Origin: Scenedesmus sp. ARA3 | Lineage: Eukaryota > Chlorophyta > Chlorophyceae > Sphaeropleales > Scenedesmaceae | Assembly: GCA_004335835.1 (NCBI GenBank) | Contig: RWJK01001464.1 | Location: 1 to 42,287, forward strand | Length of the DNA stretch: 42,287 bases | Reading direction: 5' to 3' | Part shown: one piece after another, positions 5,689 through 42,287 of the stretch | How the letters are laid out: every line of letters begins with the position of its first letter | How positions within the stretch are numbered: the stretch's first letter is position 1 | Made by a program: the position numbers and the translations under genes | Notes under the pieces: generated by a model | Database searches by the model: none | What the model was told of the DNA's origin: nothing | What the model saw: only the letters and a program-made list of their open reading frames with translations

Positions 5689-5707
5689 CTACTGCTGTTG
5701 TTGCTGC

Positions 5708-5745
<38 letters not shown>

Positions 5746-5755
5746 CTGCTGATGC
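5641..5755. repeat. GCTGCG and CTG trinucleotide tract
   Basis: Interrupted CTG/CGG triplet repeat. On the minus strand its right half encodes the poly-Gln tail of the MYND protein. Confidence 0.85.
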
Positions 5756-6745: not shown

Positions 6746-7072
6746 TGGTGCTGCTGCTGGTGCTCACCATTACATCACTCTGCAACTCTGCTGCAGCAGC
6801 ACACGTGCAGGGCTGCTGGCAGTGCACAATCCGCCAGGCTTGCAACTGTCACACATTGAGTGCGGCTGCCTACAGGCACACCTCGTGCAGTGCCTTCACG
6901 CATGGGCACAGCAGCAGCAATAGCAGCAGCAGCGGCTTCTCCTGCTTGCCACATGCTGCGGTTGCCCCTGTTGTGGTTTTCGCCTGGCCAGCTGCTCTGA
7001 CAACCTGTGCACGAGCTGCCGCCGCCGCCGCCGCCGCTGCTGCTGCTGCTGCTGCTGCTGCTGCCGCTGCTG

Positions 7073-7123
<51 letters not shown>

Positions 7124-13902: not shown

Positions 13903-15312
13903 ATGCAGGTCCTCAGCGCACAGGAGAACCTGCCTTCCATGGAGCCCCCAGCAAAGCAGCCCCGCCTGCAGCAGCAGTGCAGTTTCAAGGTCAAGCTGCT
14001 AAACCAGCACGCACAGGCACCCAAGCGGGGCTCCGCACTAGCTGCCGGCTACGATCTGTCCAGGTGAGCAGTGGCAACGTGGAAGACACAGCAGCAGAAC
14101 TCGTGTGCTGCACTGCTAGCTGTGTGCTTGAAGGCAGCATTCTTGCATGCACTGCTGTCTGCCTGCAGCCACGCATGCATGTCACGTATGCGTGACATTC
14201 CAACATCGCCGCTGTATCCTTTGTTATAGCACTGTGTCAGCAGACATGCATGTTGCTCGCCACGCAACAGCGCTTTCAGCACCACTGCAGTCTGCTGCTG
14301 CAGTTTTACTTGCCCTGCGTCGCTTGTGCTGCACCAACCACCATTGCCATTTAGTTCCATACCAAGCCTCTGTTATCACCTCATCCCTCCTTACCCTTCC
14401 TGCAGTACTTCCTGCAGCACTGAGGACTGCATGGTCCCAGCACGCGGCGTGCATGCAGTGTGCTGCTGCAGTGCTCACCAGCTTGCGCTGCCCTTCTCAT
14501 GTTCCCAGTTCAGAATCATGTGCTGCTGCCCTGTCTTTCCCCTCCTGCAGTGCCGAGGACTGTGTGATCCCAGCACGCGGGAAGCTTGCAGTGCACACAG
14601 GCCTTGCAATCCACGTACCACACGGCACCTACGGCCGCGTCGCGCCGCGCTCCGGGCTTGCAGCAAAGCACTTCATTGATGTGGGCGCTGGCGTGATTGA
14701 TGAGGACTACCGGGGGGAGGTGCTGGTGCTGCTATTCAACCACAACGACACAGACTTCAAGGGTGGGTGGTTGCGCTCCAGTACTGTACTGTACAGTACT
14801 GTTCTGCTGTCATCATGTGCTGCTGTGATCATGTGCAGCTGTGATCATGTGCTGCTGTGATCATGTGCTGCTGTTAAACCAGAACGACACAGACTTCAAG
14901 GGTGTGTGGTGAGGCCAGCAAGCATGTATGGCACAAAAGATGCCTGTGTGCTTGTTGGCAACTGGCAGTGCGGGTGTGTGGGCGTTTGTACTGTGCAGAT
15001 GTTATGTATGCAGCACATCAATGCAGGCAAGGTGTGATAGGGCCGCTCAATCACCACAGAGAGATGTTCAAAGGGTGGTGGTGTCAGTTGTTACAGTATG
15101 CAGGGGTGCTGATGCTTTGCTGCTCCTGCTGCCTGTGCCTGTCTTTTCTTCGTGCTGCTGCTGCTGCTGCTGCTGCAGTGGCCAAGGGCGACCGCATCGC
15201 GCAGCTGGTGCTGGAGTGCATCGTGACGCCAGATGTGGAGGTGGTTGAGGACCTGGACGACACCAGCAGGGGCGCAGGCGGCTTTGGCTCCACTGGCGTT
15301 ACTGCGCAGTGA
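13903..15312 (+). CDS. DUT: dUTPase (deoxyuridine 5'-triphosphate nucleotidohydrolase)
   Basis: Hydrolyses dUTP to dUMP and pyrophosphate, keeping uracil out of DNA and supplying dTMP synthesis. Exons 13903-14063, 14551-14762 and 15179-15312 join in phase to 168 aa, the usual size of a trimeric dUTPase subunit. All five motifs are present: AAGYDLSSAED (47-57), PRSGLA (86-91), [11 protein letters not shown] (101-111, with the catalytic Asp104 and Tyr107), GDRIAQ (128-133) and [10 protein letters not shown] (155-164, the P-loop-like C-terminal arm). The frame is open upstream to an in-frame ATG at 13777 that would add 42 residues rich in Ala, Arg, Cys and Ser with almost no acidic residues, like an organelle-targeting peptide. 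I chose the 13903 ATG as the conservative core start. Introns 1 and 2 contain diverged partial copies of exon 2. Confidence 0.93.
14408..14461 (+). repeat. Exon echo: 5' end of dUTPase exon 2 with acceptor
   Basis: TTCCTGCAG followed by a sequence encoding a damaged version of [10 protein letters not shown] (GAGGACTGCATGGTCCCAGC here, GAGGACTGTGTGATCCCAGC in the real exon at 14551). It lies in intron 1, about 140 bp upstream of the real exon, and carries small indels. Confidence 0.75.
14809..14873. repeat. 16-bp minisatellite (TGTGATCATGTGCTGC)n
   Basis: About four tandem units with a GATCA core in dUTPase intron 2, directly before the exon-2 donor echo. Confidence 0.85.
14876..14909 (+). 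repeat. Exon echo: 3' end of dUTPase exon 2 with donor
   Basis: ACGACACAGACTTCAAGGGT repeats the end of exon 2 (14744-14763), including the donor region, about 138 bp downstream. The minisatellite separates the two copies. Confidence 0.85.
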
Positions 15313-16198
15313 TTTTAGACACACAGAAGACACATAGATGTACAAAAAGGACTAGCACGGGGTGCTTATGTATAGTTTTTTGATGCACAGTGGCCATGGG
15401 GCGAGCAGCAGTGAGCACAAGTGAGTAAGCAATCGTGGGGGTTGTCCTGATGTGCGTTCCTGCAGGCCACAGTGTTGATGTGGTGGGGGACTTGAGCCAT
15501 GGTCGTGCATGGTTGTGCACTCTTTGTGCTGCTGTGCACACCGCAACTTGGAGCTTTTGGTGGCAGGCTTTTGGTGGCAGGCTGGGCATCGTCTGCTGTG
15601 CAGTGGCTTCAAGCAAGTTGCCTCCACAACTGATGCCAGCCTGCATGTCTGGTTCTGGCATGGTGAGAGCAGCTGCTATGCATTCATGCACGAAGAAATG
15701 GTGATGCTGGGAAAATGCTGTGGAACATGCGTCGAACCATAACATATCGGATGGATCAGTCAGAAGTGAAGCTTCCCGCCCAAGCAGCAGACCTTGTTCG
15801 TCTCACTTCCATACAGCAAACATGGCGTTGGTCGAAAGCCCGACACGAGAATGACATTTGCAGCATTTTGAAGTCGAATTTGGTTTACAACATGTACGGG
15901 TCGTCGCATGGTCTTCGTTGTCGTTCCTGGTTACGCTAGTTACACTGACGCTACGCCCTGGTTCGCTCCACTCAGCAGCTGCCATCAGGTACACTGCGGC
16001 AAGAGATGTAGATAGATGCCTGATTACACGACGTTGACCGATCGCCTGTCAGCACCTGCTCCACCGTGACTATCCATCACCGAACCCAGACGTTGCAAGC
16101 CCACTAGGGGCTTCAAAATCCTCTACATATCATATCAAGAGCATACTATCTGCTAAAGTCTTTTCAGAGTCGGGCGGCGCACCCGGCGACCCAACTGA
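15313..16198. other. Interval between dUTPase and GH79 genes
   Basis: Contains the dUTPase 3'UTR and the GH79 promoter. Short frames here have no recognisable domain and no consistent splice pattern. I see no RNA gene or mobile element. Confidence 0.5.
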
Positions 16199-19100
16199 AT
16201 GGGGCGTGAAGGCGACAGAGGCAGCCCTAGTGGCCACGCAGGCGCTTCCCAACTTACGATCAGTGTTTGCCGCAGCACTGTCAGGACGGCTGCCTGGACT
16301 GCAGCAGGCGTGGCAGTTACACTGGCTGTAGTGCTGCTGCTGCTGCCTTTGAGCGGCACCACACTGCTCCAGCAGCTGACAGCGCCCAGCGAAGCGCAAA
16401 GCTTCGCAGATCGATGTTCGAAGCTGCCTGGCTTTCACGGCCAGCTGTGCAGCGCGTATAGCCAAGCGGTTGGAGAGGACAGATGGGCAGTTGCCAGTGC
16501 CTGGCAGCAAGCGTCACCTGCATCATGTGAGTGTCTTGCAGTGTGCTACACTATATCAGCCACTGCATTTGAGGGCAGATGAATGCAGCAGGTCTCCATC
16601 CTGCAGCTTGATAGTCTGCAAAACCTATGTTATGAGTTTTGCTTTTTGCCGTGATGTCACACACTTCATTTGCAGCAGTTGTTATTCTTGGCCCTTCCTC
16701 AAATCCTGTTGTGAAGGTCACTTGTCCATACTCATTTGAGCCGCCTGCAGTGGAGGGGGAGCAATGGGAAGGTTCTGCGCTTGTGGCGGGCACAGCAAGC
16801 ATGCATGAGCCTCGACCGCTGACCTCTGATTGCTGTCCTGTCTGTTTTGTCTGTTTTTGACAATATATCTGCAGATATCTGTGCTGGGCTCAGCATGGAG
16901 TGCTTACAGCAGGACCTCAGCAGCAGCGCAGCAGGCAGCAGCTGCACGCCACTGCGGGACGGCAGCCAGTGTGCAGCAAATGGCAAGCGCTGCAAGCGGA
17001 GCTTCTGTGGAGGTAAGACACCGCGGCCCTGTGCTTGACATGTCGTTACACAAAACATGACTGCCCGCATGCACTCATGAGCTGAAAGCCGCTGATACAA
17101 GCCGGCGTGCCACCACCTGACAAAACCTTTGAAGGACTTCAACAGGATGTGGATCAAGCAGCTCACGGCATGCTCGTCATGCCTTTGCTGTTGCTGCTAC
17201 TGCTGTTATGATGCCGCTTGCAGGCAAGCCGGCAGGCTCCCCAGTTGGCCAGTCAGAGGTGCAAGCTCTGCTGGCCACACTGCAGCAGCAGCAGCAGCAG
17301 CGGCAGCAGGAGGAGGATGAAGCCACCCTTGCAGCCGGCAGCGTTGCCAACTCCAGCACTGCCATGCAGTTGCAGACACAGCAGCAGCAGCAGCAGCAGC
17401 AGCGCGATGCAGATGCCCCGGTTGCGCGTATGTTGGGAGCCAGGTGGTCCTACAGCCAGAAGTACAATTTGGACAAGCCGATTGGTGCCTGGCCGACCGC
17501 AACAGTCAGCGTCAGCAGCGGCCCTCTTGGAAAGCGTGTCACTGACACCTTCCTAGCTACCTCGCACGAGTACTTGAGGGTTGGCGACTATGGCGATGAG
17601 CGCATTGTCAGCGTGAGTGTCTGTTACATAACTTTGTTATGGTATGTTGTGAAAATAAGATTCTGCAGGCGCGTAGTGCAGTGTATATTGGATGAGCTTG
17701 CAGGGCAGGATATGTGATGTGCCCGCATCAGCATGCACCGTGATGGAGTGTGCAGTAGGTGCCTCGCGACGACAGCGGCCAGCAACCCAGCTAGCCTGAT
17801 AGGCACTAAAGCGCTGACGATGCTGCTGTGTGTGCTGGCTGTTACTGCTGCTGTTACTGCTGCTGCTGTTGCTGCCGCAGGCGTGGGCCAACATTTTTAA
17901 GATGCTGTCTCCCTCACCTGTGGTTCGTGTGGGGGGTGCCAGCCAGGACAAGATGACGCGCGTGCCTGGCAACAACGTGTGGATCGCGCTCAAGAAGTTC
18001 AGGGACGCAACCAACTGCAGGTGCGAAAGGCGGCGGAATTTGTGGTTGGTATGGAGTATTTGGGGGGCAGCACTGCGCTGGTTGCTGAAAAAATGTGCCA
18101 AGCAGCCGGCTGCAATGAGTTACAAATGCTGTTGCTGAGAATTTGCTGGTGGCAGCGGAGGTGGGCTTCGGTGGGAGGTGCCAGCAAGGACAAGAAGATG
18201 ACACGGGTGCCTGGCGACGATGTGTGGATAGCGCTCACGAAGCTCAGGGACGCCACCAACTGCAGGTGAGCATGCCTTGAGTGAGTCGGGCCCAAGAATG
18301 CAGCGTTATGAATGTCTCCTGTGTTGCGATGGCGTTGACAGGCGACGCTTCTGTACAGCCGCCGCATCTGCAGACGCTGCGGACCATTTGCAAGAGGATC
18401 ATTGTTGATGGCTAGTGAGTGCTGCTTGATGGCTGGCGAGGCCTGAAACTATTGTGAATATTTCTTGATGATGTTTATTGCCGCAGGTTCATCCTGGGTC
18501 TGCCGCTGTTCCCCAAGAACTCCATTGACACGTCCCAGAAGATCACGGAGCAGTCACACAAACTCTAGACACCCAATTGTCATGTGCTGCACCATATCTG
18601 CTGCAGGTTCATCCTGGGTCTGCCGCTGTTCCCTAAGAACTCCATTGGCATGTCCCAGAAGATCATGGCGCAGTCGCGCAAGTACCTGGGCGACTCGGTC
18701 ATTGGCTACGAGCTGGGCAACGAGGTGAGTGCTAGCGGCAGCAGCTGCATGCTTTGTGGAAGAGTTACGAGGCAGCAAAACGATCATGGCGCAGTCACGC
18801 AAGTACCCGGGGGACTCCTTCATCGGCTATGAGCTGGGCAATGACGTGAGTGCTGCAGGACCAGCTGCAAGGTCAGCAGCCTGGCCTCAAGCCTGGGTGG
18901 CTGGACACAGACGGTGATATGTAACACGAACATGCTTCAACTTCAAACATACTGTAACACAACTGGTCTGCAACTCCTGCGATTGATTGCAGCCTGAGTT
19001 GTGGCCAAAAGGTCTGGCCGGCTGGACACAGCCAGTGACATATTCAGCACGTGCATGATAATTTCAAAGCTTACACAGAAACTTACTCCTGCACATGTTA

Positions 19101-22100
19101 TGATCTGCTGCCTGAGTTCTGGCCCAATGGCCTCGGCGGCTGGGGCTCTGATGGCAAGTGGAAGGCGGGCTTTGAAGCATTCACTGCATTCGAACTCTTC
19201 GGGGACTCGTCACAAACATGGGCTACTATTGCTGGTTGCCACCCAGCAGGCGATGACATGATCACTTTTGTGAAGCAGGCACCTGCTTTGGTGGCTGCTT
19301 TTGTGCACTGCTGCTATCTGATGCGGTGTCACCCGGACACTGATCCTGAGGTCTTTCTGTCCTCTCAGGCTATTGCTCAAGCTATTGATGATGCTGATGA
19401 GTTTTTTTCTGCGTTTTCGTCTGACGGTTTGGACGATGATGAGTTGTTCTTCGATGTTTCCTCCCCCTATGAGCCTCTCGTTGCCTCCTGACTGGGGTTC
19501 CCACTCCTCGTTGAGTGGAGCATGTAATGTAATGTAATGTAATGCATTCTCAGTACAGCTGCGTTGCTGCTCCTGCATTCAATTACTTGCAGCCTGAGTT
19601 CTGGCCCAATGGCCTGGGCGGCTGGGGCTCTGATGGCAAGTGGAAGGCTGGCTTTGAGGCCTATGCGCAGTGGTTCCACAAAGTCGCTCTGGCCATCAAT
19701 CCCTGCGGCAGCAAGAAGATGCTGTCAGGCCCTGGCTGGGGTGAGCGCCATCATTGTGTTATAATTGTTATTGTGTTATGATTGTGTTATGAATGTATTT
19801 TGTTGGGTTTTGTGGCGCAGCCAGCGGTTTCGGCAGGGTGTAGGCGTAGTGGTCCCACCAGGTAGCGCTTGCCATCAACGCCTGCGGCAGCAAGAAGATG
19901 GGGGCAATCAACCCCTGAGGCAGCAAAAGAAGATGCTCGCAGGGCCTGAACGGAGTGAGCCTTTGAACTGTGGTATGGTTGGGGTTGTCTGTATGTGCAC
20001 TGTCACAGGCACAGCAAGCTCACATGGTGCTTGCCACCTAGCCGCTGGTCTACGTAGCTCACGCAAGGTGTTGCTCCTCTTACGCTGCACAATGTCTGCT
20101 GCTGTTGTTGCTGCTTACTTGCTGCCATGCAGGCAATGTCAACACGCAGCCCGTCAGCTGGCTGGCGCGCATCTTGTACCAGGGCAAGGAGTGCTACCTG
20201 CGCGAGCTCAACGTGCACTGTGAGCGCCTGGCTAGATAGTCACAAACATCTTGGCGTGTCACACCTAGCACAGATCTCTGTGAAGATGCGCTGCGCTACC
20301 TGCGGCAGCTCAGCAGGCACTGTGAGCGCCCGCCTCTATGTTGTTGATGATGTTTGCCTGTTATGCCCAGCCTAGAAACCTCTGAACATAAGCAGAGGTG
20401 CTTGCGGGAGCTCAACACGCACTGTGCACTCTTTCATCACCAACTGTGGGTTCTATCTGCCGCTGCTTGTTTTGCTCTGCGCAGTCTACCCCTACATCAA
20501 CAACGAGACAGTAACAGCCACGCAGCTGCTGAGTCAGCCGCTGCAGGACTTTGGCGTCAGCAAGTACAAGGATTACCAGCGCATTGGGACTAAGGAGCGC
20601 CTGGGCATACGCATCAGCGAGACCAACTCCCTGTGAGTGATCATCATCAACCATTTAAATTAAAAGCAGTATATGTCTGTTATAATCTGATGCTGCTCTG
20701 CATGCTTTGCAGCTGGTCCATCCTTCTTGCTATTCACAGCAAAGTATTAATCACTACAGCTACATGCCATGTCCTTCAAGTCTTGCACGTGTGTTGTGCT
20801 GTGCTATCTGCCGCTTGCTTGCAGGTACGGAGGGGGCCGGCCCTCTTTGAGTGACACGCTGGTTGGGGCCCTGTGGGTGGCAGATGCGCTGTTCGCATTC
20901 TCCGATGCAGGTGGGTGCTGTGCAGCGCAGCTTGACCAGCTTTGACCAGCTTGACCAGCTTTGACCAGTTTGACCAGCTTTGACCAGTTTGACCAGCTTA
21001 GGCTGGTGTTGGGAGCCAGCAAGGGGGTGCACACGGGTGTGTCACAGAGCCATATTGTTGTGCACTTGCAAGCGTGTGAGCAGTGTTGTGGCTGTCATGG
21101 CTGCCACAAATGGTTGGCGCACTCACAAAGTATGCATGTTCTGATTTGGGGAAGGTGATCGGTTGCGATCGTATTAGTCGGCTCATGTTGTTGATAGTGA
21201 GATTGCAGTTTGCATGTCAGCATTCTAGCCGTACAGTTTTGACTTGCCTCACCGGAAGATCTAGCAGTACTGCCACCGCTGCTGCTGCTGCTGCTGCTTA
21301 CCATGCTTTCTTGCAGGTGCTGTTGGGTTCCACCTACACTGGGGCATTGGCGGCCTCCCCACTGACGTTGCTGCTGCTACTGCTGCTGCTGCTTTGTTGC
21401 AGGTGCTGTTGGGTTCCACCTGCATTGGGGCATTGGCGGCCACCCGACTGAAGCCTTGGGTCAGCCCAACACAGGCGTGCAGACAAACTATGCTTACAAC
21501 GTGCGTTGCTTGATTTCTGATGGCGCCTTTCCCCCTCAGCTTATGTAGATGCGTGATTGTATGTCACATACAGTATGTGCATTGCCCCCATGGCTTGCCA
21601 CGCCTGCCTCATCAAAAGCCTGCAGCAACAGATCCTGCTGGCAAGTCCATGAGACCATCAATTTGACGTCTGTTATAAAACTGGTATTCAACTGTGTGTC
21701 TCATTTGCTTTTCAGGTGCGTCCAAAAGAGCCCCCGCTGCCGTATCCAAGTGTGCATGCCCCCTGGTATGGCTACCTCTTCTGGACCATTGCTGCTGCTG
21801 GTGACTACGGCAGGCATGCGGATGCCAACTTTGTGCCTGTGTGGGTGCAGAACAGGGGCAGGTGCAGCGCCAACATGAAGGTGGGTGCGCTGCTGCTGCT
21901 GCTGCTGCTGCAGCTTCTGTGCTTAGAGCAGACATGCATGACCCAACTTTGTGCCTGTTTGAGTAGAGCAGAGGGGCAAGTACAGCGCCAGCAGGAAGCT
22001 GAGGGCAAGTGCTGCTGCTTATGGTGCTGTATTTTTGCAGAGTGTTGTTGTTTGGCTGGAAATTGTATGCGCCTCTGCTTAGCATCCACAGCTTGCCGTG

Positions 22101-22571
22101 GAACTACTTCATCAACTCAAACTTTGCAAGCGGCTTGCCTCCGATCCCTCTCTCAGTTTCCTGTACTTTCTGCTGCCCTGCGCGCCCCCTGGCATTGCCT
22201 TCACAACCCCTCATATGGTCGACCTGCAGATCTGGGCGCTGAAAGCAGACATGGGGGACTTGCGCATGGCCCTACTCAACAAAGATGAGGCCCGCAACTG
22301 CAATGTGAGGCTCATTGTGGACCCGCAATACTGCAAAAAGGCCGGCATCCTCACTCGGCTGCTGCCTGGGCCGGAAGGCATCTTCAGTAAGGGCATGATC
22401 ACATGGCAGGGTCAAACATACGAGGGCTCAGGTTTGACCGGCAAGATCCAAGGCAGCAAGGCAGTGCAGCAGCTGATGCCGGTCAAGACGAAGGATGGCA
22501 AGCGCTGCAAGTTTGAGGTGCCGGTTCCGAGTGCCAGCGGGGCAATCCTGGCTGCAAAGTGGTCTCGGTAG
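16199..22571 (+). CDS. GH79 (heparanase-like) glycosidase, membrane-anchored
   Basis: Thirteen exons in consistent phase: 16199-16526, 16676-16771, 16875-17012, 17224-17612, 17881-18020, 18607-18724, 19593-19740, 20133-20219, 20485-20632, 20825-20910, 21403-21500, 21716-21880, 22230-22571; total 760 aa. Residues about 31-52 form one hydrophobic segment after a short basic N-terminus, which suggests a type II signal anchor. A Cys-rich and Gln-rich linker precedes the catalytic part. GH79 retaining glycosidases use two Glu residues. Here the acid/base is Glu403 in YELGNE and the nucleophile is probably Glu527 in ISETNSLYGGGRPSLSD. The C-terminal beta-domain has MKIWALKADMGDLRMALLNKD. Family activity is on uronic-acid-containing polysaccharides or proteoglycans; the algal substrate is unknown, perhaps cell-wall or matrix glycans. 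Several introns hold diverged copies of adjacent exons. Confidence 0.88.
18171..18271 (+). repeat. Exon echo: 3' two-thirds of GH79 exon 5 with donor
   Basis: Encodes GGASKDKKMTRVPGDDVWIA and LRDATNCR against GGASQDKMTRVPGNNVWIA and FRDATNCR in exon 5 (17881-18020), followed by a good GTGAGC donor. No clean acceptor precedes it. Confidence 0.85.
18487..18568 (+). repeat. Exon echo A of GH79 exon 6 (5' part, acceptor side)
   Basis: CCGCAG acceptor then codons for FILGLPLFPKNSIDTSQKIT, like the real exon at 18607, but it ends in a TAG (18566-18568) before the catalytic segment. Confidence 0.88.
18782..18845 (+). repeat. Exon echo B of GH79 exon 6 (3' part, donor side; E to D)
   Basis: Encodes IMAQSRKYPGDSFIGYELGN then Asp (GAC), followed by GTGAGT. 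The real exon encodes ELGNE at this point. The copy lacks the 5' half of the exon. Confidence 0.88.
18993..19026 (+). repeat. Exon echo 1 of GH79 exon 7 (acceptor side)
   Basis: GATTGCAG acceptor then CCTGAGTTGTGGCC, coding PELWPKGLAGW against PEFWPNGLGGW in the real exon at 19593. The frame ends soon after. A still weaker copy of the following segment is seen near 18890-18945. Confidence 0.75.
19109..19191 (+). repeat. Exon echo 2 of GH79 exon 7, interrupted
   Basis: Encodes PEFWPNGLGGWGSDGKWKAG, almost identical to the true exon 7 start, then is cut at 19191 by the insertion described at 19192-19542. Confidence 0.88.
19192..19542 (+). mobile_element. Short LINE-like (non-LTR) insertion, 5'-truncated
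   Basis: A 351-bp segment splits an echo of GH79 exon 7. It is bounded by TGCATTC at 19185-19191 and again at 19543-19549, a 7-bp candidate target-site duplication. It has an open frame ending in a strongly acidic C-terminus (AIAQAIDDADEFFSAFSSDG, DDDELFFDV) with a TGA at 19489-19491. A short 3'UTR follows with a 6-bp stem-loop (CCACTC-CTCGTT-GAGTGG, 19501-19518) and a (TGTAA)4 tail. Simple-repeat tails and 3' hairpins are typical of 5'-truncated non-LTR retrotransposons. No reverse transcriptase remains, so the class is inferred. Confidence 0.6.
19840..19960 (+). repeat. Two exon echoes of GH79 exon 7 3' end
   Basis: GCCATCAACGCCTGCGGCAG (19871-19890) and AATCAACCCCTGAGGCAGCA (19906-19925) with AAGAAGATG and GGCCTG(G/A) context repeat the end of exon 7 (19692-19740). 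The second also keeps a GTGAGC donor. Both are diverged. Confidence 0.75.
20284..20432 (+). repeat. Two exon echoes of GH79 exon 8 3' end with donor
   Basis: CTACCTGCGGCAGCTCAGCA then GGCACTGTGAGCGCC (about 20296-20332) and TGCTTGCGGGAGCTCAACAC then GCACTGTGCAC (about 20400-20430) copy the end of exon 8 (about 20196-20227), including the donor position. Confidence 0.75.
20929..21003. repeat. TTGACCAGC(T) minisatellite in GH79 intron 10
   Basis: About eight tandem 9-11-bp units alternating TTGACCAGC and TTTGACCAGT. Confidence 0.9.
21311..21368 (+). repeat. Exon echo of GH79 exon 11 (acceptor side)
   Basis: TTGCAG then GTGCTGTTGGGTTCCACCTA matches the real exon 11 start (GTGCTGTTGGGTTCCACCTG at 21403) and stays close through GGGGCATTGGCGGCC before diverging into a CTG tract. 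Confidence 0.9.
21940..22010 (+). repeat. Exon echo of GH79 exon 12 3' end
   Basis: CCAACTTTGTGCCTGTTTGA and the following GGGGCAAGTACAGCGCCAGC copy the end of exon 12 (about 21826-21880). A stop replaces Trp and the donor is degraded. Confidence 0.8.
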
Positions 22572-24637
22572 CTGCTGGGAGAGGCAGCTGCAGGAGGGCC
22601 TGGCGGCTGCACCAGTGACGCTATATATGAAGAGTTTGAGGAGGCAGCACCAGCAGCAGCAGTAGCAGCAGCAGCAGCAGCCATGCATGCTGCAAAAAAA
22701 GGATGTTCATTGCATGCATGCACCATCTGCACAGTGTGGTGTGATGTGCTGCACGTTTGAAGTGCCTGTTCCACATGCAAGCAGGGCGATCCTGGTTGCA
22801 AAGTGGTCCTGGTAACTGCTGGAAGAGGCTGTTGCTCAGGCGCAGGGTGGAGGCTTGTGAAGTTGAAGCAGCAGCAGCAGCAGCAGCAGCAGAAGCGGCA
22901 GCAGTGCTGCATGTTCCATGAATAGGGGAGGCCAGTGCATGCATTGACCATTTGCACAGCGTAGTGAGGTGCCGTATTCCGCACAGCGTCGTAATCTGTA
23001 GTAGCAATCCCAGGGTACACATAATGCCGGAGTTGATGCTGCACACATACATTCAACTTGCTGACGTTTTGCTGTAGGTGCACATTGTCATAGTTGTTGC
23101 TGCAGTTTGCTAGAGTTTGCTAGAGTTGCTGAGCTGCCCATAAATCTGTCAGATACTGTCACAGATCAGGCGCTATGTCTGCCAAGCATGATGTGTGCAC
23201 CCGCTGCATTCAAGCAGGCCACATCTGCCGTGCAGTGAAGAATGCATGTTTGCTCTTACCTTTTGCTTGTTGACACTTAGTGCTTTAGACTAGCAGTTGA
23301 AAGTTGTTTATGTAGACCAGTCACAGGACTTCTTTTGATTTGTCCAGCAGGGCCCGAACTGAACTGAATGTGTGTATACGCATGGCACACAGCTGCCAGC
23401 ATGCAACATTGGCGCGCGTCGCAGCATATCCATGGCTATGTTGTCATTTGATCGCATCAAAGGTGGTGCGCTGTGCAGCAGCTTGCATGCGGCCAGGTGG
23501 TGGCGCTCCAACATGGTGCACAAGTCTCTTGCTGAAACAGGACAGAGGGCACCAACAGACTGGCATCTGTATGCCAACCAGGCAGCTTGTCGTGACACAC
23601 ATATGATATTCTACATTAGGAGCATCACCATGCTCGTGCCTTGTTGGTGACTGGCGTCAGTGTGCCAACCAGGCGGCGCGGATGTGCTCCAGGTTTTTGC
23701 ATTGATGTGGATACCGTGTGCATATAGTTGCGGCTGCATGTGCGCTGTGTGTCGTCATGCCAGGGCCCTCTGCTTGCAGTGACTCATGCCACAGCACACT
23801 GAGCCAAGTTGGCAAGAGCAACATGTGCACAGCATGACTTTGTGCACAGCATGATTGTGTGAACAGCTCGACTGTGTGCACCACCTTGTGAATTGTGTTT
23901 CGCAAAGGTTTGATTATGCCATGATGTGCGTCCGGCATAGCCTCACATGTGCTCCCCGCATTTGATGCCTCAGCCCTGGTTTACTGATGCACTATCAGCT
24001 GAATGTTGTACTGGTCTTGTACTGACGCTATTGCAGTGCGCGTGATGATCACACAACATGGTTCCATGATAAGCATTCATAGTGGCTGCTGTCAAAGGTT
24101 TGGGTGTTTTCTCATCCCTTCAAGGACAGCGGATGGAGACGCGGGGCGTCACAGCGCTTATCACAATGTCACACTGTGAGGGGTGAGGGGTGTAAGTGCT
24201 TTACGTATCGCCTTACTGTCTTTTTGTGGACAGAGGCAACCTTTTGTAATTGATACAAGGCAAGTTTCATGGTGAGGGCTGCGAAGGGTCTCAGTGACTG
24301 GCAAACAAGCAAGCCTGGCCTGCCAGGCCCAGGCTGGGCATGCCATCAGGGCTTTCTCTGCTTGCAGGGCAGCAGTTGGTGGCGCTGAGTGGCAGTAACA
24401 TCACTGTCTGCAGACATGACTTTACAGAAGTGAACACTTCATTGCTGTTTCTGATGGTTGCTTGTTTGCTCAGCTGCACTTTGAAAGGTGACCAGGAGGG
24501 AAGTGGGAGGGTTCAATGTCATTGTCATTATTTGAGCGGTGCTGCTGCTGAGTTTTGTGCAGCTGCAGCAGCGCACCCACGCTGATGTTGCCATGTTGCT
24601 TTTTGGTTAATGATGATAGCACTGCAATGAAGCAAAC
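22572..24637. other. Interval between GH79 and DYRK genes, with a terminal-exon echo
   Basis: At about 22748-22840 the end of GH79 exon 13 is repeated. It encodes CTFEVPVPHASRAILVAKWS then Trp, then TAA instead of TAG, and the downstream GCTGCTGGGAGAGGC-like stretch is also shared. CTG tracts occur near 22650 and 22867. From 22920 to 24637 I see no gene: short Cys/His-rich frames only. The DYRK promoter should be at the right end. Confidence 0.55.
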
Positions 24638-27600: not shown

Positions 27601-28716
27601 GCAGACCCAAATGACACCTCCTGGGAGTTCCCCATGACGCCAGCAGCTGTGCCGGAAGTAACACAGAGCAGCAGCAGCGGCGCTGCGGGCGGCAGCGCTG
27701 CAGATGCAGCTGCGGACGGCTCGCCTGCTGCTGCTGCTGCTGCTGCTACTGCTGATACAGTTGTGCTTGCTGCGCCTGTAACACCCACAAGCATGCCGCC
27801 AATCAGCCCTCGTTCTGCTGCAGCAGCAGCAGCAGCAGGCGCTGCTGCCTCCCCTGCTGCTGCCGATGCAGCGGCGGAGCCGCAGAGTGTGTTTGCAGCT
27901 GTAGCAGCAGCAGCGCTCGAGCGCGGCGGCAGCGGCAGCATGGCAAAGCTTGAGCGCGCAGCAGCAGGCAGCGCCAGCGGCAGCAGGTCAGGCAGTAGAC
28001 CTCCCAGCAGCTCCCTTGGGGGCGCAGGGCAGCTAGCAAAGCGCGGCAGCAGCAGCAGCTTGGCGAAAGCAGGCAGCCAAAGCAGCACACCTACGCCAGC
28101 AGCTGGCGCTTTGCCAGGCATGGCTGGCGGCAGCTACCGCAGCAGTCCAGTCGCTGGGGCAGGCTCTGAAGTGCAGGAGGGTCTGCCTGTGTATGCTGGG
28201 CAGCTGGGCCAGGTAGAAGGCGATGCTGATGCAGCGTCAATTGGCACAGGTGTGTGATGAGCTGTGCAGCAGAGCGCTGCTGTGCTGCCTTTTGTGCATG
28301 CGTAGTTTGGGAGTGCAGGAGGGGCTGCCTATGTATGCTGGGCAGCTGGGGCAGGTGGAAGGTGATGCTGATGCAGCCTCAGTCGGCACAGGTGCGTGGT
28401 CATGTGTGCAGCAGAGCGCTGCTCTGTCGCTGTTTTTGCATGCGTGGTCTGGAAGTGCAGGGCGGCTTGGCTGGCTGCCTATGTATGCTGGGCAGCTTGG
28501 GTTTGTGGGTGGTTTGCTGCAGCCTGGCGAGGCTGATGCTGCCTCAACAGGCAAATGTGCGACTGGAACTGTGTGCTGGCATGTGTGGTTTGGACTAGCA
28601 CCCTGTAAGACCACCCTGCGGATTTTGTGCTCTAGGCCTTAACAGATAGAAGCGTGCAAGCACACAACACAATCATTGGACTGACGCTAGTCGAGCCCTG
28701 CTGCTGCCGGCGCCGC

Positions 28717-28751
<35 letters not shown>

Positions 28752-30076
28752 GATCAGGTGGCTACGCGGGCTCCGAGCTGGGCGCGCCGCGCTATGTGGT
28801 GGACGAGTCGGGCAACCTGCTCTACGAGTACGACGCGGCCTACGTGGACAGCAAGTGAGTGCAGACGGGAGGCCATGAAATGTGCTTGTGTTGTCCCTGA
28901 GGCATTGCATTTGCACGGCCGCGTGCGCGTGACCAACCGTTCAACAAGCGGCACCACCTGCTTTGCCACCATCATCACCTGCCGCGTCACCTGCTGCGGC
29001 AGTACAAGAAATTTTGTGCTGCCTGTCTTCCACCGACGGCGCCTCACCACTTCCTTTTGTTGCTGCATGCATGTGGACTCGTAACTTCTGAACAATTTCA
29101 ACATTGTGCCGCAGGTACGAGACGTTTGAGCTGCGCGTGATCCACCGGCGCCGCCACACCGGCTTTGAGGACAGCAAGGAGTTCCCCATACGCAAGAACG
29201 ACTTGATTGCGGGGCGCTACCAGGTGTGGCAACCACGGGTTGATGGTTGAGTGTGTTTCATTGTGTTTGTGTGTGGTTTTAGAACAGCAAGGAGTTCCCC
29301 TTACGCAAGAACGACCTGATCGCGGGATGCTACCAGGTGCGGCTGGTTGCTGTCTTGTTTATTCCCTGAAGCCTTGAAGCATGTGTGCTGATGATACGTT
29401 CTTGGTTGCCGAGCGTTCGGGTGATATTGTTGTAGCGCTGTGCGCTGCACTCCTTGGCTTCCTTGTTTGTGTTGCCCTCGGTTTGTGTTGCTGACGGTGG
29501 TAACGGTTGGCGCCGTGTCTGTGCTTACACACCGCTGTCATGGCCTGCACAACATGCAGGTGATGGACTTCCTGGGCAGTGCGGCCTTCAGCCAGGCGGT
29601 GCAGGCGCTGGACACGGCCACAGGCGCGCTGGTGTGCCTGAAGATCATCAAGAACAACAAGGTGCGGGTGTTGACCGTTGAGTTGGATTGCTGACTGTTC
29701 TGTTCTACTGCCTTGGTGGTCGCGTTCATTGCGGGTCCCTACACTAACGGTGCAGGACTGATCCATTGCTGCAGCAGCTCATTGTTGTTGAGCTATCATT
29801 TTGCTGTCACCTTGCCGCCCGCAGGACTACTTTGACCAGAGCCTTGATGAGATCAAGCTGCTGCGCTACGTGAACGCTGCCGACCCGGAGGATGAGCACC
29901 ACATCGTGCGCCTGTACGACTTCTTCTACTACAAGGTGCGACCGCGGTTTTGTGGGTTCGTGGCAGTGCTATTGCCGCTGCTGCTGCTGCTGCTGCTGCT
30001 CTGACGAGTACCATATTGTGCGCCTGTACGACTTCTTCTACTACAAGGTGCGAGTGGGTGTGCGTGTTTGTGGCAG

Positions 30077-30130
<54 letters not shown>

Positions 30131-32543
30131 GCCAAGCACCACATGGTGCGCCTGTACGACTTCTTCTACTACAAGGTGCGTGTGGGTTTGTGGGTTTGTG
30201 GCAGTGCTGCTGCTGCTGCTGCTCTGCCAAGCGCCACATCGTGCGCCTGTACGACTTCTACTAAAAGGTGCGTGTGGAATTCAGTTGGTGTCCAGAACTT
30301 AATGACCCTTTGTAACGCTGCCTCTGTTGATTGTGTTTGTGGTGTGTGGATTACTGCGCACATTGCAAGGGAAACTGCCCACATTGCAAGTAGAGATTGG
30401 AAAATTGCGTACATGACGGGCTAACGACATCATGCTGCTGCTGCTCCTGCTGCTTCTGCTGCTGCTGCAGGAGCACCTGTTCCTGGTGTGTGAGCTGCTG
30501 CGTGCAAACCTGTACGAGTTCCAGAAGTACCAGCGCGAGAACGGCGACGAGCCCTACTTCACGCCGCCACGCATCCAGCGCATTGCGACGCAGGTGCGCA
30601 GCAATTGGATGGTGAAAGGTTTTTTTAGGTTGCTATGATGAGATCTGCGGTGTGAGGGCAGCATTCAGTAGCTATTCCACGCCGCCTCGCATCCAGCCAT
30701 CGCGACGCAGGTGCGCATATTGTTGGAATCAAGTGTCCTGATGTATATATGTCGCTTCACGCGGTCACGCATCCGCGTAGGTGCGCACACCATAGAAGCA
30801 AAGTGCAATCCTTGAAATGCATGTGTGGATCTTTGTCACTCCACGTCGCCACGCATCCAGCGCACCGCCATGCACGTATTCACACCGTGAGTTAAAGTGA
30901 GATCCTTGAAACTGCTGCAGAGCTTGGCCTTCCTGCGCACAGCCTAGGCCTGCTGCACAAGTACCTTTCAGGCTACTAGTATTTCTTTGGTATCTGCAGG
31001 AAACTGAACCCTTCTCTGCTTGCATACACGCAACTGCAGGTGCTGCAGAGCCTGGCCTTCCTGCACAGCCTGGGCCTGGTGCACAGCGACCTCAAGCCCG
31101 AGAACATCCTCATCAAGAGCTACTCCCGCTGCGAGGTCAAAGTCATCGACCTGGGCTCCTCCTGCTTCGTGACAGACCACCTGTCTAGTTACGTGCAGAG
31201 CCGCAGCTACAGAGCGCCGGAGGTCATTCTGGGGCTGGCGTATGGGCAGAAGGTGGACCTGTGGAGCCTGGGGTGCATCCTGGCTGAGCTGGCGACTGGA
31301 TACGTGTTGTTCCAGGTGGGCTGTGACTGCTGTTTGACCGGGGTTTGACTGTGGTTTGACTGTGTTTAACTGGATGGACGGATGGCGTATGGGCAGAAGG
31401 TGGACCTGTGGAGCTTGGGATGCATCCTGGCTGAGCTGGCGACTGGATACGTGCTTTTCCAGGTGGGTTTGACTGGGGTTTGACCAATGTTTGACTGCAG
31501 TTTGACTGAGGTTTGGGTGTTATTTGACTCGCTGGCGAGGTGGCGTACATGCTGACGATGGACCTGTGGAGTTTGCATCACATCCTGGCTGAGCATGTGA
31601 CTGGACACCTTTTGTGATTTGTCTGCTGACAAGTAAAGTAACACACTGCGCAACTGCTACTGTTACACATGCATCACTGCAGAATGACTCGCTCGCCACG
31701 CTGCTGGTGCGGCTGGAGGGCATGCTGGGCCCACTTCTTTTGCCTTATGACTGGCATGCTGCACTGGCTGCACTCATGTATCGTGCTTCTGCACAACGCC
31801 ACACTCCTCGTGCGCCTGGAGGGCATCTTCTCCAACACATCTGCGGACGAGTAACACACTGCGCACCTGCCAACCTGATGCTTGCAGAACGACAGCCTGG
31901 CCACGCTGCTGGTGCGCCTGGAGGGCATCCTGGGCCCGCTGCCCAGCTGGATGATCAGCCAGGGCCGCTACAGCAGCAGGTACTACACGCGCAGCAGGCA
32001 GATCTACGAGCGCAACAAGAACAGCGGGCGGTGAGTGGCCTCACCAATGCGTCTATGTATGTACTTGGCTGGCTTGGGTTCGGAACACGTGATCTAGATG
32101 CGATGACACGGCCGGCTGAAGACCAGCATGTGCTGCTCCTGGCGCTTGGTTGCAGTAGGTTCTGCCCATACAACGCAGGATCAGCGGCACCACGTGCTGT
32201 GCTCCGCCTGTTACTGGCATGGAAGCTTGCTGCTGCTTGCTGCTTGATCGCAGGTACGAGCTGCTGCTGCCCGAGCGCACCAGCCTGCAGCATCACATAA
32301 CTCTTGCCCTTACTCATCCCCTTGCCTGCTTGCCACATGCTTGATCAACTGTGCAGGTACGAGCTGCTGCTGCCCAAGCACACCAGCCTGCGGCACCGCG
32401 TGCCAGGCGCTGATGAAGGCTTCCTGGACTTCCTATCGTACCTGCTCACGCCAGACCCCAGCGCACGGCCTAGCGCAGAGGACGCGCTGCAGCACCCGTG
32501 GCTGAGCCACCCCTACCCGCCAGCAGAGCAGATTCCGGATTAG
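24638..32543 (+). CDS. DYRK-family protein kinase (plant/algal DYRK type) with LisH-like N-terminus
   Basis: Thirteen exons in consistent phase: 24638-24903, 24987-25084, 25444-26677, 26961-27196, 27533-28249, 28758-28854, 29115-29223, 29560-29661, 29825-29935, 30471-30593, 31040-31315, 31888-32030, 32357-32543; total 1232 aa. Residues about 6-36 resemble a LisH helix pair. Residues 90-860 are Ser/Gln/Ala-rich and probably disordered. The kinase domain is about 920-1225: Lys947 (VCLKIIKNNK), Asp1048 (HSDLKPENIL), Asp1068 (VIDLGSS, DLG form) and the activation loop SSYVQSRSYRAPEVILG with Tyr1082, the residue DYRKs autophosphorylate. DYFDQSLDEIKLLRYVN and YFTPPRIQRIA support DYRK. In Chlamydomonas a plant-type DYRK affects starch and oil accumulation; orthology is inferred. 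Partial exon copies flank most kinase exons. Confidence 0.92.
27531..27535 (+). other. NAGNAG acceptor at DYRK exon 5
   Basis: The sequence TTGCAGCAGACACAGG allows exon 5 to start at 27533 or 27536, adding or removing one codon without changing frame. A similar TGCAGCAG occurs at GH79 exon 2 (16671-16678). Confidence 0.6.
28312..28555 (+). repeat. Two exon echoes of DYRK exon 5 3' end
   Basis: Copy 1 (28312-28395) repeats the segment encoding VQEGLPVYAGQLGQVEGDAD through GGCACAG/GTGCGT. Copy 2 (about 28452-28555) keeps TATGTATGCTGGGCAGCTTG but has an insertion and loses the donor. The original is at about 28171-28255. Period is roughly 140 bp. Confidence 0.9.
29280..29342 (+). repeat. Exon echo of DYRK exon 7 3' end with donor
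   Basis: GAACAGCAAGGAGTTCCCCT then ACGCAAGAACGACCTGATCG and CTACCAG/GTGCGG copy the end of exon 7 (about 29170-29229), with Arg changed to Cys before Tyr-Gln. Confidence 0.92.
30018..30272 (+). repeat. Three exon echoes of DYRK exon 9 3' end with donor
   Basis: The 35-nt end of exon 9 with its donor (29906-29940, coding VRLYDFFYYK) recurs identically at 30018-30052 and 30146-30180, and in shorter form with a stop at 30241-30272. Successive spacings are 112, 128 and 95 bp. Each unit includes the same intron start (GTTTGTGGCAGTGCTG) and a CTG run of different length. Confidence 0.95.
30067..30127. repeat. (CTG)n tract in DYRK intron 9
   Basis: Nearly uninterrupted CTG run between exon-9 echoes 1 and 2. 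Shorter CTG runs lie in the other units. Confidence 0.95.
30676..30875 (+). repeat. Three exon echoes of DYRK exon 10 3' end
   Basis: CCACGCCGCCTCGCATCCAG then CCATCGCGACGCAG/GTGCGC (about 30677-30716), a shorter piece ending CGCATCCGCGTAG/GTGCGC (30752-30785), and CCACGTCGCCACGCATCCAG (30841-30860) copy the exon-10 end (about 30560-30598). Divergence increases with distance. Confidence 0.8.
30909..30961 (+). repeat. Exon echo of DYRK exon 11 5' end
   Basis: CTGCTGCAGAGCTTGGCCTT then CCTGCGCACAGCCTAGGCCT matches GTGCTGCAGAGCCTGGCCTT at the real exon start (31040), with a small insertion that breaks the frame. Confidence 0.85.
31384..31616 (+). repeat. Two exon echoes of DYRK exon 11 3' end
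   Basis: 31384-31467 matches 31237-31320 at 80 of 84 positions by hand count, including the GTGGG donor. A second, more decayed copy is at about 31542-31616. Unit periods are 147 and 158 bp. Between them lie tandem TTTGACTG-type repeats (31320-31375 and 31466-31532). Confidence 0.95.
31674..31846 (+). repeat. Two exon echoes of DYRK exon 12 5' end
   Basis: CACTGCAG then AATGACTCGCTCGCCACGCT (from 31682) matches the exon-12 start AACGACAGCCTGGCCACGCT (31888). A second partial copy (about 31791-31835) keeps TCGTGCGCCTGGAGGGCATC. Confidence 0.88.
32251..32299 (+). repeat. Exon echo of DYRK exon 13 5' end
   Basis: CGCAG then GTACGAGCTGCTGCTGCCCG and CACCAGCCTGC match the real exon-13 start (32357), with AAG changed to GAG and later divergence. 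Confidence 0.9.
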
Positions 32544-34334
32544 GCTACACTATTTCTACGCTGCAGCCTGGTGCTGCCTGGCTGGCGCAGTGGTGTTGCA
32601 AGCGGGACCGGGCTGCAGCAGCAGAGCAGATCCCAGACTAGGCTACTGTAAATGTGTGCTGCAGTGTGGTGCTGGCTGGCCAGTGCAGGATAAAGGACTT
32701 GAGCAGCCCTGGCCAAGCCGCTCTTATCCTCCTGCGAAGCAAGTCCCTGACTAGGCAGCTGGCCGGTGCAGGGTTGCTGGGGAAGGGTGCTGTCGGCAAC
32801 TGGGAAGAGCAGCAGCAGCAGCAGCAGCACCCCGGGCCCTGGCCAATGCACCCTACCCGCCAGCAGAGCAGGTCCCCTGTTTGCTGAGCAGCTGCGCAGC
32901 GGCCCGCATCTGTTGTGATGTAGTGGGGACTGCTGGGTTGCCGTGTGACAAGCGCATGAGTAGGCAGCTGTAGTGTGGCAGCAGCGTGACTGAGCTTTGC
33001 CACCTGCAAGCATCAGCACAGCCCAGCCGTAGCTGCCGGGGACGCAAGCGCCAGCAGATGCCAGCAACACTGATGGGCGCTGCTGCAGCTGCCTGCCTTG
33101 GCTAGTACCTTTCCTGTGCCAAGCACCTCTGTCACATATCTATTGATTGGCATCGGGTGCGCTGCATGGGGCTGTGCACGAATGCATCGCAGAAAGGGAC
33201 TGCTGCTGTCTCCTGTGGTTGTTCCTTCTGCGCTGTCACCGCAGCTTGTTGGCTGGGCAGTGGCGAATTGCACAGGGATGTGCACGGTCGATCATCCAAC
33301 ATAATCAGCTGGGTGATAGGTGCGTGCAAGGTAGAATGTAAGCTGGTCCATGAGCATGGTTGCAACCAGTTGCAGCGGTGCTACCGTGGTGTGCGCTGCT
33401 GTGCAGGCTTCCATTGGGCCTCTTGCTGCTTGTGTGTGCTTGCACGTGCTGCGTATTTGCTGGAGTTGTGTCGTGTGGTGTCTGCTCATTCATGCTGCGC
33501 TGTTTTGTGCAACAGGCGGGGTTGTGTGCTGTCCATTGACAGCAGATGTGAGGCAGGGGGCTACCTGCAGCATGGTGCTGCGTTTGCAGGTCTGCCACAG
33601 ATCTGTCGCATAGCGTGTTCTTAGCAGCCGAGGTTTCTGTTGTTTGGGCACCCTTACGCATCCGCTACTGTATAGGAACCAGGCCAGCAGCTGTGATGTA
33701 GCTCAGGCGTTGGGGAATTGATTGTGTGTGTTACTTTGTTGCTTTCATGCGCGTGTTGCGTCTGGTGTTGTGCCACCACAGTCCCAGCTGGCAGCTTTCT
33801 TCCTTTGGGTTCCGTGTGCATGCCTTGGCCGACCTGAAGCTCGTTGCTGTGACGTGTTTGTCTGCCTTGGTTTCTTCAGGTTATCGCGGCTTGATACATC
33901 CGCATCCCGTGTGGTGCCATACAGCTGGACTGAATTCAGGTGCATGCTGTGCATGCCGGTCCAGTGTTCGCAATGGGCGACTCCGTTCTCAATCTCTGTT
34001 GTTTATGTCTTGTAAAGTAGTTTCTGACACATGATATGCATGGCAGAGACACACCTTGATTGCCGCAGGAAGTTCCCAGCCGGGAGCAGAACAGACGTCA
34101 CTGTCACTCGCAACCACGCACGCGATAAGCGGAGCCGTGCCCCACTTCACGTTGCATATCACGTGACTGTTCCGTCAAAAACATTTCACCGTGCGGAAAG
34201 CCTCAACAGTGACCAGCATACTTCCCTTCCACTCAAGTTCCAGCTCCCTGCATCACCGTTTCCAACACAGCACCAGAGGTTATCGGACATGTATGCGGCT
34301 TAAGCTGAACCTATCAGCATATAACGGTGCTACA
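32544..34334. other. DYRK 3' flank with echoes of the last exon, then no recognisable gene
   Basis: The terminal stretch coding PPAEQIPD-stop is repeated near 32616-32645 (GCAGAGCAGATCCCAGACTA then GGCTACTGTAA) and near 32848-32873. The first repeat supplies the TGTAA (about 32647), the likeliest poly(A) signal. From about 32900 to 34334 short frames show no domain and no splice pattern. The promoter of the 34335 gene lies at the right end. Confidence 0.55.
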
Positions 34335-36021: not shown

Positions 36022-36054
<33 letters not shown>

Positions 36055-36096
36055 CCACCACCAACACCATTATCATCATCATCATCATCATCATCA

Positions 36097-36128
<32 letters not shown>

Positions 36129-36547
36129 TGCTGCTGCTGCTGCAGCATTGTCCGCGGCCGTGGTAAGGGTGTCAGCCCCATTGCTGCTGAAACTCCTCCA
36201 GCCATGTCCACCTGTCAACTAGCCAGCAACTGCAGTAGCTGAAAGCAAAATTACTTTAGACTGAATCCCTGAAGTTATGCAGTGTGATGCGTTGCTGGTG
36301 CTAACGCGGGTGTGCGGCTGCTGCTGCAGGGATCATGTGGTGCACGAAGTGCAAAAGGTCAACGGTACCGTCAGCCGTGGAGCACACCTCACTTGGTGGG
36401 TGCGCAATTCTGTGTATTACATCACTCTGCAAAGGCAGCTGCGCCAACGATGACAAAGAACTTGCCGCCGCATGGCATGCTTGCCGTGTCAGTGCAATGC
36501 CCCTTGCAGGGTGACCCAGCAGTCAGCTTGTAGATCAAACATTTGAT

Positions 36548-36589
<42 letters not shown>

Positions 36590-37326
36590 TGCACACAAGC
36601 ACTTATGTCGCGGGCAGGCACTAACCAGGGCGGAACCAGTTGCAGGGTGAGCCAGCAGTCAGCTTGTACAACCAGCCATGTGGTGCAGCAGCAGCGTGCA
36701 TGGCACTGATGCGTGCAGCGAAGCACATGCCTGCAGGCCTACCGCGGGCGATTTGATCCACATCTACCACAACACAATGCATAAAACTTGCAATGATCTT
36801 GATGGGTGCAGGTGTGAGATGATTCTGAGCAACTGCATCTACAACAAAAACAGTGCAATGGAGCCGTGGGTGTGTCCCCCCAATGCCAAGGGCTTCATTC
36901 GATCTGATAAAGAGTCCTCTTGGGCCAAGAAGTACAAAACGAAAGAAAAGATGGTGGTCAACTGGTTTAGGAGCACAGGCATTGAGTTCAGCAGAATCGA
37001 GGTGAGTCGTCACTTCAGCTCACCACAGCTCTGTATACATGCATGTTGAGTTGCCGAGCTGTTGTGGCATGCTTGCATCATGTTACATGTCAGCACACGG
37101 CAGAGCATTGCACAGGTGTGCACAGCAGGTTGGTGTGCCACACAGGAGCCGCTTGTTCAAGGTCCAGATGCCACTAGGACGATTGGGGCAGCGAGCCCGC
37201 AGTGAAGACCAGCTCTGCTGGTGTGTACAGCGAGCTACTAAGCTAATTGACCCAGAGTCCACAATACTGATGCATCACCTGGAAGGCAGAGGGATAACAG
37301 TCATGCTTTGCGTCAGGCATCCAAAC

Positions 37327-37382
<56 letters not shown>

Positions 37383-37479
37383 AAGCCAGCCTCCTCTTGG
37401 GCCCGGTGCCTCGTGTGGTGGCCACAACACGCCACACCTGCATCCAACTTCTGATGTTGCTGTTGCTGCTCCTATTGCG

Positions 37480-37510
<31 letters not shown>

Positions 37511-42229: not shown

Positions 42230-42287
<58 letters not shown>
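42230..42287. repeat. (CTG)n tract at right edge
   Basis: Uninterrupted CTG repeat running off the window, in an intron or flank of the 41520 gene. Confidence 0.95.

What the first reader, a model, noticed from the sequence alone, without database searches (positions are those of the whole stretch)
14408..37440. Exon echoes: introns carry diverged copies of the neighbouring exon edge with its splice site
In four unrelated genes (dUTPase, GH79, DYRK, PhlG-like) partial copies of exon ends recur inside the adjacent introns or the 3'UTR. I count more than twenty, at most DYRK kinase exons and most GH79 exons from exon 5 on. Copies include either the acceptor plus exon start (upstream) or exon end plus donor (downstream), are generally less intact than the true exon, and range from identical to badly decayed. 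Tandem duplication is known to create exon variants and introns, but this density across neighbouring genes is striking. It could be a genome-wide process of short tandem duplication feeding alternative splicing or intron growth.
Basis: seen in the sequence. Interest (0 to 1): 0.9.

Follow-up and report, generated by a model that had tools for sequence, protein, structure and literature searches.

The report
Exon-edge tandem duplications in algal introns
In this green-alga-like genome, short stretches that straddle the border between a coding exon and its intron have been copied head to tail again and again, so that introns carry fading copies of the neighbouring exon edge; the kind of mutation is known, but its density here looks unusual and it may help introns to grow.

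Summary
In the DYRK and GH79-like genes, 16 of 34 comparisons of an exon with its adjacent intron (or 3' flank) give an echo (score >=20), against 0 of 546 with non-adjacent introns and 1 of 34 reverse complements. The true exons alone splice into open frames. It is genome-wide: 17 of 40 exon loci picked by rule from two families hold such direct copies, 0 of 40 inverted ones, 0 of 40 after shuffling. Nearest-copy lags cluster at 86-168 bp (74 of 131) and 219-285 bp (33), with 4 between; the second peak is partly two units with a decayed middle copy (11 of 24 tested). In 14 of 21 donor pairs the intron part is alignable too: tandem duplication across the border. The copy contiguous with the exon serves the frame; the spare copy decays, its intron part fastest. 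Classified events are nearly all at borders, more than a placement model predicts, though the excess is weaker in random sequence. Splicing of echoes is untested (no RNA). A known kind of event, with unusual density and a narrow unit size.

The parts
14726..14910 (+). dUTPase exon end (14726-14771) and its echo (14865-14910), lag 139
   Evidence: dUTPase domain on 14552-14770
14410..14593 (+). pair 14410-14460 / 14543-14593 near the dUTPase exon, lag 133, 80%
   Evidence: exon model not built
17881..18265 (+). GH79-like exon 2 (17881-18020) and donor-side echo 18162-18265
   Evidence: score 69
18487..18844 (+). GH79-like exon 3 (18607-18724) with acceptor-side echo 18487-18561 and donor-side echo 18776-18844
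   Evidence: scores 61 and 47.5
19111..19917 (+). GH79-like exon 4 (19593-19740) with acceptor-side echo 19111-19178 and donor-side echo 19841-19917
   Evidence: scores 62 and 41
20133..20426 (+). GH79-like exon 5 (20133-20219); weaker donor-side echoes at 20295 and 20390-20423
   Evidence: one search score 18 (below 20, not counted)
21317..21500 (+). GH79-like exon 8 (21403-21500) and acceptor-side echo 21317-21365, lag 86
   Evidence: score 41
21716..21998 (+). GH79-like exon 9 (21716-21880) and donor-side echo 21928-21998
   Evidence: score 41
22230..22814 (+). GH79-like last exon (22230-22571) and echo of its coding end in the 3' flank, 22748-22814
   Evidence: score 43
28123..28576 (+). 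array of period about 142 upstream of DYRK exon 28759, read as repeats of an exon end with donor
   Evidence: exon model not tested here
29002..29336 (+). DYRK exon 29115-29223 with acceptor-side echo 29002-29048 and donor-side echo 29277-29336
   Evidence: scores 21.5 and 46
29825..30277 (+). DYRK exon 29825-29935 and three donor-side echoes (about 30003, 30135, 30230)
30471..30877 (+). DYRK exon 30471-30593 with donor-side echoes 30672-30710 and a weaker one 30838-30877
30913..31615 (+). DYRK exon 31040-31315 with acceptor-side echo 30913-30966 (seen, not above threshold in the masked test) and donor-side echoes 31380-31462 and 31541-31615
   Evidence: score 73 for 31380
31683..32030 (+). 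DYRK exon 31888-32030 with acceptor-side echoes 31683-31735 and 31797-31827
   Evidence: score 37
32254..32876 (+). DYRK last exon 32357-32543 with acceptor-side echo 32254-32292 and an echo of its coding end in the 3' flank, 32837-32876
   Evidence: scores 33 and 23.5
36504..36668 (+). PhlG-like region: pair 36504-36532 / 36640-36668 beginning at TTGCAG, lag 136
   Evidence: exon model not built
37385..37569 (+). PhlG-like region: pair 37385-37440 / 37514-37569 behind CTG tracts, lag 129
   Evidence: exon model not built

Best explanation
Stretches of roughly 85-170 bp are duplicated head to tail in many places of this genome. When the unit straddles an exon border, the copy contiguous with the rest of the exon keeps the old junction; the other copy (exon edge, splice site and some intron) falls inside the intron, or behind the stop codon in a last exon, where it does not enter the reading frame. 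Such events are tolerated. The spare copy decays much like neutral DNA, its intron-derived part fastest, and later rounds add further copies. SHOWN: direct local copies, narrow unit size, border position, open frame from the true exons alone, tandem structure in most donor pairs tested, occurrence on many contigs. INFERRED: that the spare copy is spliced out, that events inside coding exons are purged, and why borders prevail. For the last point I favour retention (lock-in): duplications wholly inside an intron can contract back to one copy without harm, while contraction through a decayed exon copy would damage the exon. UNKNOWN: the lesion that makes the duplications.
For: 16 of 34 against 0 of 546 and 1 of 34; open spliced frames. 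17 of 40 rule-picked loci direct, 0 inverted, 0 shuffled. Random 10-kb stretches: 91 direct and 0 inverted pairs at lags 100-800, score >=28. Lag peak 86-168, repeated in the later DEAD set. Intron part alignable in 14 of 21 donor pairs; 29 of 52 close pairs have spacer homology. Both last exons examined have echoes of their coding end behind the stop, which fits 'tolerated outside the frame' rather than a need for a splice site.
Against: Exon-derived parts diverge 2.5 times less than intron parts (44/647 against 159/947) and show no gap columns against 230: more than I would expect from constraint on one exon copy alone, so gene conversion or selection may also act. Synonymous share is 57% against 23% for random single changes; part comes from the true exon, but weak selection on echoes is not excluded. 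23 of 52 close pairs show no spacer homology. Lock-in itself is untested. Few very young copies: 5 of 116 cores >=95% identical, 25 at 90-94%.
Confidence: 0.65

Rival explanations
1. Duplications fall at random and the border pattern is mainly detection bias: exon-derived copies stay recognisable longer, and with short exons many units span a border anyway.
For: In random sequence only 32 of 60 events hold a predicted splice site, a two-fold excess over shifted positions (mean 16.0, largest of 500 was 25), which mild bias could explain. Simulation gives border events a 1.5-fold advantage in detection (51/221 against 67/424).
Against: With that advantage about 45% of border plus intron-only events should be border (my arithmetic), yet the 13 kinase events and the DYRK/GH79-like self-hits I classified are all border, and the DEAD events are border with one ambiguous. 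That classification was by eye and not blinded, on windows centred on exons.
Confidence: 0.2
2. Border-specific mutation: something at exon-intron junctions (chromatin, transcription or replication) makes 85-170 bp duplications centred there.
For: The junction lies near the middle of the unit: exonic share mean 0.51, 2 of 28 above 0.65 against 40% in a uniform model.
Against: The 28 pairs were hand-picked and exon ends may be shortened by decay. Echoes behind stop codons and events without predicted genes nearby (L006 and L021) do not need a splice junction.
Confidence: 0.25
3. Echoes are functional alternative exons or splice sites kept by selection.
For: Exon-derived parts and splice motifs persist better than the intron around them; synonymous share 57%.
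Against: Echoes are partial exon copies in the 16 tested cases; some have stops or frameshifts; mismatch phase in unframed pairs (0.520) is close to random (0.502, sd 0.011).
Confidence: 0.07
4. Exon edges are copied without their intron, for example through RNA or by insertion at splice-like sites.
For: In some close pairs similarity stops within about 7 bases of the junction and 23 of 52 close pairs lack spacer homology.
Against: 14 of 21 donor pairs keep an alignable intron part and several arrays are complete tandem units.
Confidence: 0.05
5. Assembly artefact.
For: Only contigs, no reads, were available.
Against: Copies show graded divergence (cores from about 60 to 100% identical) and recur on unrelated contigs in direct orientation only. 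Collapse of near-identical copies could instead hide young events.
Confidence: 0.02

Closest known systems
Tandem duplication across an intron-exon border, potato RdRp gene (PMC4974935; passages seen)
   Same: [quoted passage not shown] a second, 83-bp tandem duplication lies inside an intron of the same gene.
   Different: A single gene, and there the duplicate made a new intron and inserted exon sequence. Here many genes, no sign that the echo enters the frame, and both acceptor and donor sides.
[quoted passage not shown] passages seen)
   Same: Local tandem duplication that involves splice-site sequence.
   Different: There the exon segment is duplicated and a new intron lies between the copies. 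Here the intron already exists and the echo lies beside its own exon.
Internal gene duplications (Gao and Lynch 2009; recalled, seen only as a reference)
   Same: Duplications internal to genes, exonic or intronic.
   Different: I recall 8-17% of genes affected in six genomes; here 17 of 40 windows of about 1.7 kb, with a narrow unit size. Not measured the same way.
Novel intron positions by sliding or tandem duplication in Drosophila (PMC2891723; search listing only)
   Same: Tandem duplication near splice sites.
   Different: By its listing, individual novel intron positions rather than a genome-wide pattern; not read.
Introners (PMC9860276; search listing only)
   Same: A mass source of intron DNA.
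   Different: Introners are copies of a dispersed element; these units come from the neighbouring exon and rarely match other sampled loci.

Membership tests
Tandem genomic duplication | Copies in direct orientation, close together | tested here: met
   17 of 40 loci direct, 0 of 40 inverted; lag table
Tandem genomic duplication | Whole unit duplicated, including the intron side | tested here: met
   14 of 21 donor pairs have an alignable intron part; the 7 others and 23 of 52 close pairs do not show it
Tandem genomic duplication | Unit spans a splice junction | tested here: met
   16 of 34 comparisons, match reaching the border; 28 pairs measured
Intron gain by AGGT duplication | New intron between the copies; echo of the upstream exon end abuts the downstream exon | tested here: not met
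   Donor-side echoes in DYRK end more than 200 bp before the next exon (coordinates)
Intron gain by AGGT duplication | Intron absent at this place in relatives | not testable with these tools
   No relative's genome is held
Mutually exclusive exon duplication | Complete exon with both splice sites and frame | tested here: not met
   The 16 echoes match part of the exon only
Mutually exclusive exon duplication | Both copies used in RNA | not testable with these tools
   No RNA data
Introners | Same sequence at many loci | tested here: not met
   17 cross-locus match rows, mostly between kinase exons or to one mobile-element piece; sample of loci only

The most novel reading that the evidence does not exclude
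A one-way ratchet of intron growth: units of about 125 bp are duplicated continually; those within introns contract again, while those across an exon border become locked in once the spare exon copy decays. The introns of a genome would then be built in good part from dead copies of their own neighbouring exons, with echo divergence as a built-in clock.
Probability: 0.3. Interest if true: 0.82.

Novelty: new variant of a known kind. Interest (0 to 1): 0.62.

Why it matters
Where intron sequence comes from and why introns lengthen is a standing question. A genome in which 17 of 40 rule-picked exon neighbourhoods hold a recognisable copy of an exon edge would let age, rate, direction, loss and splicing effect be read from many events. 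The echoes also look like exons: my crude gene finder called several of them as exons, so annotation of such genomes is at risk of false exons.

Tried and rejected
Selection on echoes as the main cause: codon-phase and synonymous counts were weak or ambiguous. A shared element family: few cross-locus matches. AGGT-type intron creation: echo positions do not fit. A separate 240-bp class: 11 of 24 tested second-peak pairs show a decayed copy in between against 2 of 19 controls, and 9 of the 11 lie at 0.45-0.57 of the lag; the other 13 did not reach the threshold, and 9 further pairs were full-length and not tested. Dropped rows: one search's shuffle criterion (see observation check); L040 (score 20, 62%) under the threshold of 26; L005, L012 and L016 for N content. 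One search is a hand-picked list of 31 of which 3 had no echo string entered; 28 rows remain, lags of five were halved by hand (one unit of two copies assumed), and L055 (lag 261) may also be two units. The lag tables include the coding LRR repeats of the window and several pairs from one array, so events are not all independent. The home-made gene finder gave noisy first calls, found 10 of 18 known exons exactly and 26 of 34 known edges, and was used only for the shifted control. Eight paper searches, seen as listings apart from passages of PMC5966456, PMC3488318, PMC3443670 and PMC4974935, showed no report of exon-edge echoes at this density; most subscription papers are not held.
Full report
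WHAT WAS LOOKED AT. The window lies on contig C1086 of an 87.3 Mb genome in 1567 contigs with no relatives held. Its DYRK protein is closest to a Monoraphidium minutum protein (87% over 96%). GC of the usable random stretches is 0.55-0.60 in all but one (0.64, L017). Tetradesmus obliquus is listed at 57% GC, 108 Mb and mean intron 462 bp (PMC5966456 Table 1, passage seen). That it is a sphaeroplealean green alga is my inference.

GENE MODELS. DYRK exons joined at GT/AG sites give an open frame of 381 codons (Pkinase E=4.3e-53). The GH79-like exons give an open frame with only the terminal stop, but Pfam supports GH79 only below its cut-off. Neither frame needs an echo. Full models of the dUTPase and PhlG-like genes were not built.

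ECHOES ARE REAL. Each exon was compared with its adjacent introns, or with 400 bp of 3' flank, after masking simple repeats: 34 comparisons. 16 score >=20; of 546 comparisons with non-adjacent introns none exceeds 19; of 34 reverse complements one reaches 30.0. In the 16 the match reaches the border facing that intron exactly in 12 and within 1-7 bases in 4. A looser shuffle criterion (18 of 34) was dropped because unrelated introns often passed it too (47 of 546).

GENOME-WIDE. Twenty 10-kb stretches were fetched; three were dropped for N, leaving 17 with 150,283 unmasked bases. At score >=28 direct/inverted pairs number 2/1 at lag 30-100, 40/0 at 100-200, 40/0 at 200-400, 11/0 at 400-800 and 3/1 at 800-6400. 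Then forty exon loci were taken by rule before their flanks were seen: every fifth row from the fourth of the kinase list, and the first twenty contigs of the DEAD-helicase list. 9 of 20 and 8 of 20 hold direct copies; 0 of 40 inverted ones; 0 of 40 after shuffling.

SIZE RULE. Of 131 nearest-copy lags (window, random and kinase loci), 74 lie at 86-168 bp, 4 at 169-218, 33 at 219-285, 19 above and 1 below. The DEAD loci, fetched later, run 110-168 and then 223-269, followed by longer lags. Of 24 second-peak pairs tested, 11 have a significant copy in between (2 of 19 controls), 9 of them at 0.45-0.57 of the lag. I take the basic unit to be about 85-170 bp. These tables include several pairs from one array and the coding LRR repeats of the window.

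TANDEM STRUCTURE AND DECAY. In 21 donor pairs (several from one array) the intron part beside the echo is alignable in 14; there exon-part mismatches are 44/647 with no gap columns and intron-part mismatches 159/947 with 230 gap columns. The exon parts were delimited by similarity, which favours gap-free stretches. Of 52 close pairs 29 have spacer homology and 23 do not. So most tested pairs are tandem duplications of border plus intron. Constraint on one exon copy explains part of the slower exon-part decay; gene conversion or weak selection may add to it. In 17 framed pairs changes are 40 synonymous, 28 non-synonymous and 2 stop, with 23% synonymous expected for random single changes.

BORDER PREFERENCE. 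Units of observed size placed at random over the two genes are 56% intron-only, 32% border, 2.5% whole-exon and 9% inside an exon. Simulated decay favours detection of border events 1.5-fold (51/221 against 67/424), so about 45% border would be expected among border plus intron-only (my arithmetic). By eye, not blinded, I classed all 13 kinase events as border, likewise the DYRK/GH79-like self-hits (one search list) and the DEAD events except one ambiguous pair (L045, 346/460). The windows are centred on exons. In random sequence the excess is smaller: 32 of 60 events hold a predicted splice site against a shifted mean of 16.0 and a largest value of 25 in 500, with a gene finder that finds 26 of 34 known edges and flags 12 of 16 known events. 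In 28 hand-listed pairs the exonic share of the unit averages 0.51, 2 of 28 above 0.65 against 40% in a uniform model.

READING. Duplication across an exon border is tolerated because the copy contiguous with the exon remains in use and the spare one stays outside the frame; both last exons show echoes of their coding end behind the stop. Why intron-only events are scarce in genes is open; I favour lock-in, with border-specific mutation and detection bias as rivals. Very young copies are few (5 of 116 cores >=95% identical, 25 at 90-94%), from a past burst or from collapse of identical copies in assembly.

NOVELTY. The event type is known: a potato case duplicated an intron end plus exon start (PMC4974935, passages), and tandem duplication is a recognised route of intron gain (PMC3443670, passages). 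The density, unit size and border focus did not appear in the eight searches named under Tried and rejected.

Noticed in passing
window 19410-19544: A 135-bp piece inside the GH79-like intron is 97% identical to L008:612-746 and ends in a TAATG run; it looks like the end of a mobile element inserted between an exon and its echo (19111-19178).
   Followed up: partly
window 1262-5237 and 8105-11964: Two neighbouring LRR-type genes are tandem duplicates, 72-90% identical in blocks that look like exons, the stretches between not aligned; their coding LRR repeats have a period of 141 bp.
   Followed up: no
window 22230-22571 against the intron 21881-22229: The only strong reverse-complement match (score 30.0) in the control.
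   Followed up: no
window, many places, e.g. 7036-7124, 30077-30132, 37328-37382, 42230-42287: CTG/CAG runs are scattered through introns and exons and often form the tract before an acceptor; several echo units include one.
   Followed up: no
window 35032-35299: Array of period 49 in the PhlG-like region, shorter than the echo units.
   Followed up: no
L015:6631-6731 and 6868-6969: A pair at lag 237 with 95% identity whose second copy has one extra base; the middle copy is decayed.
   Followed up: partly
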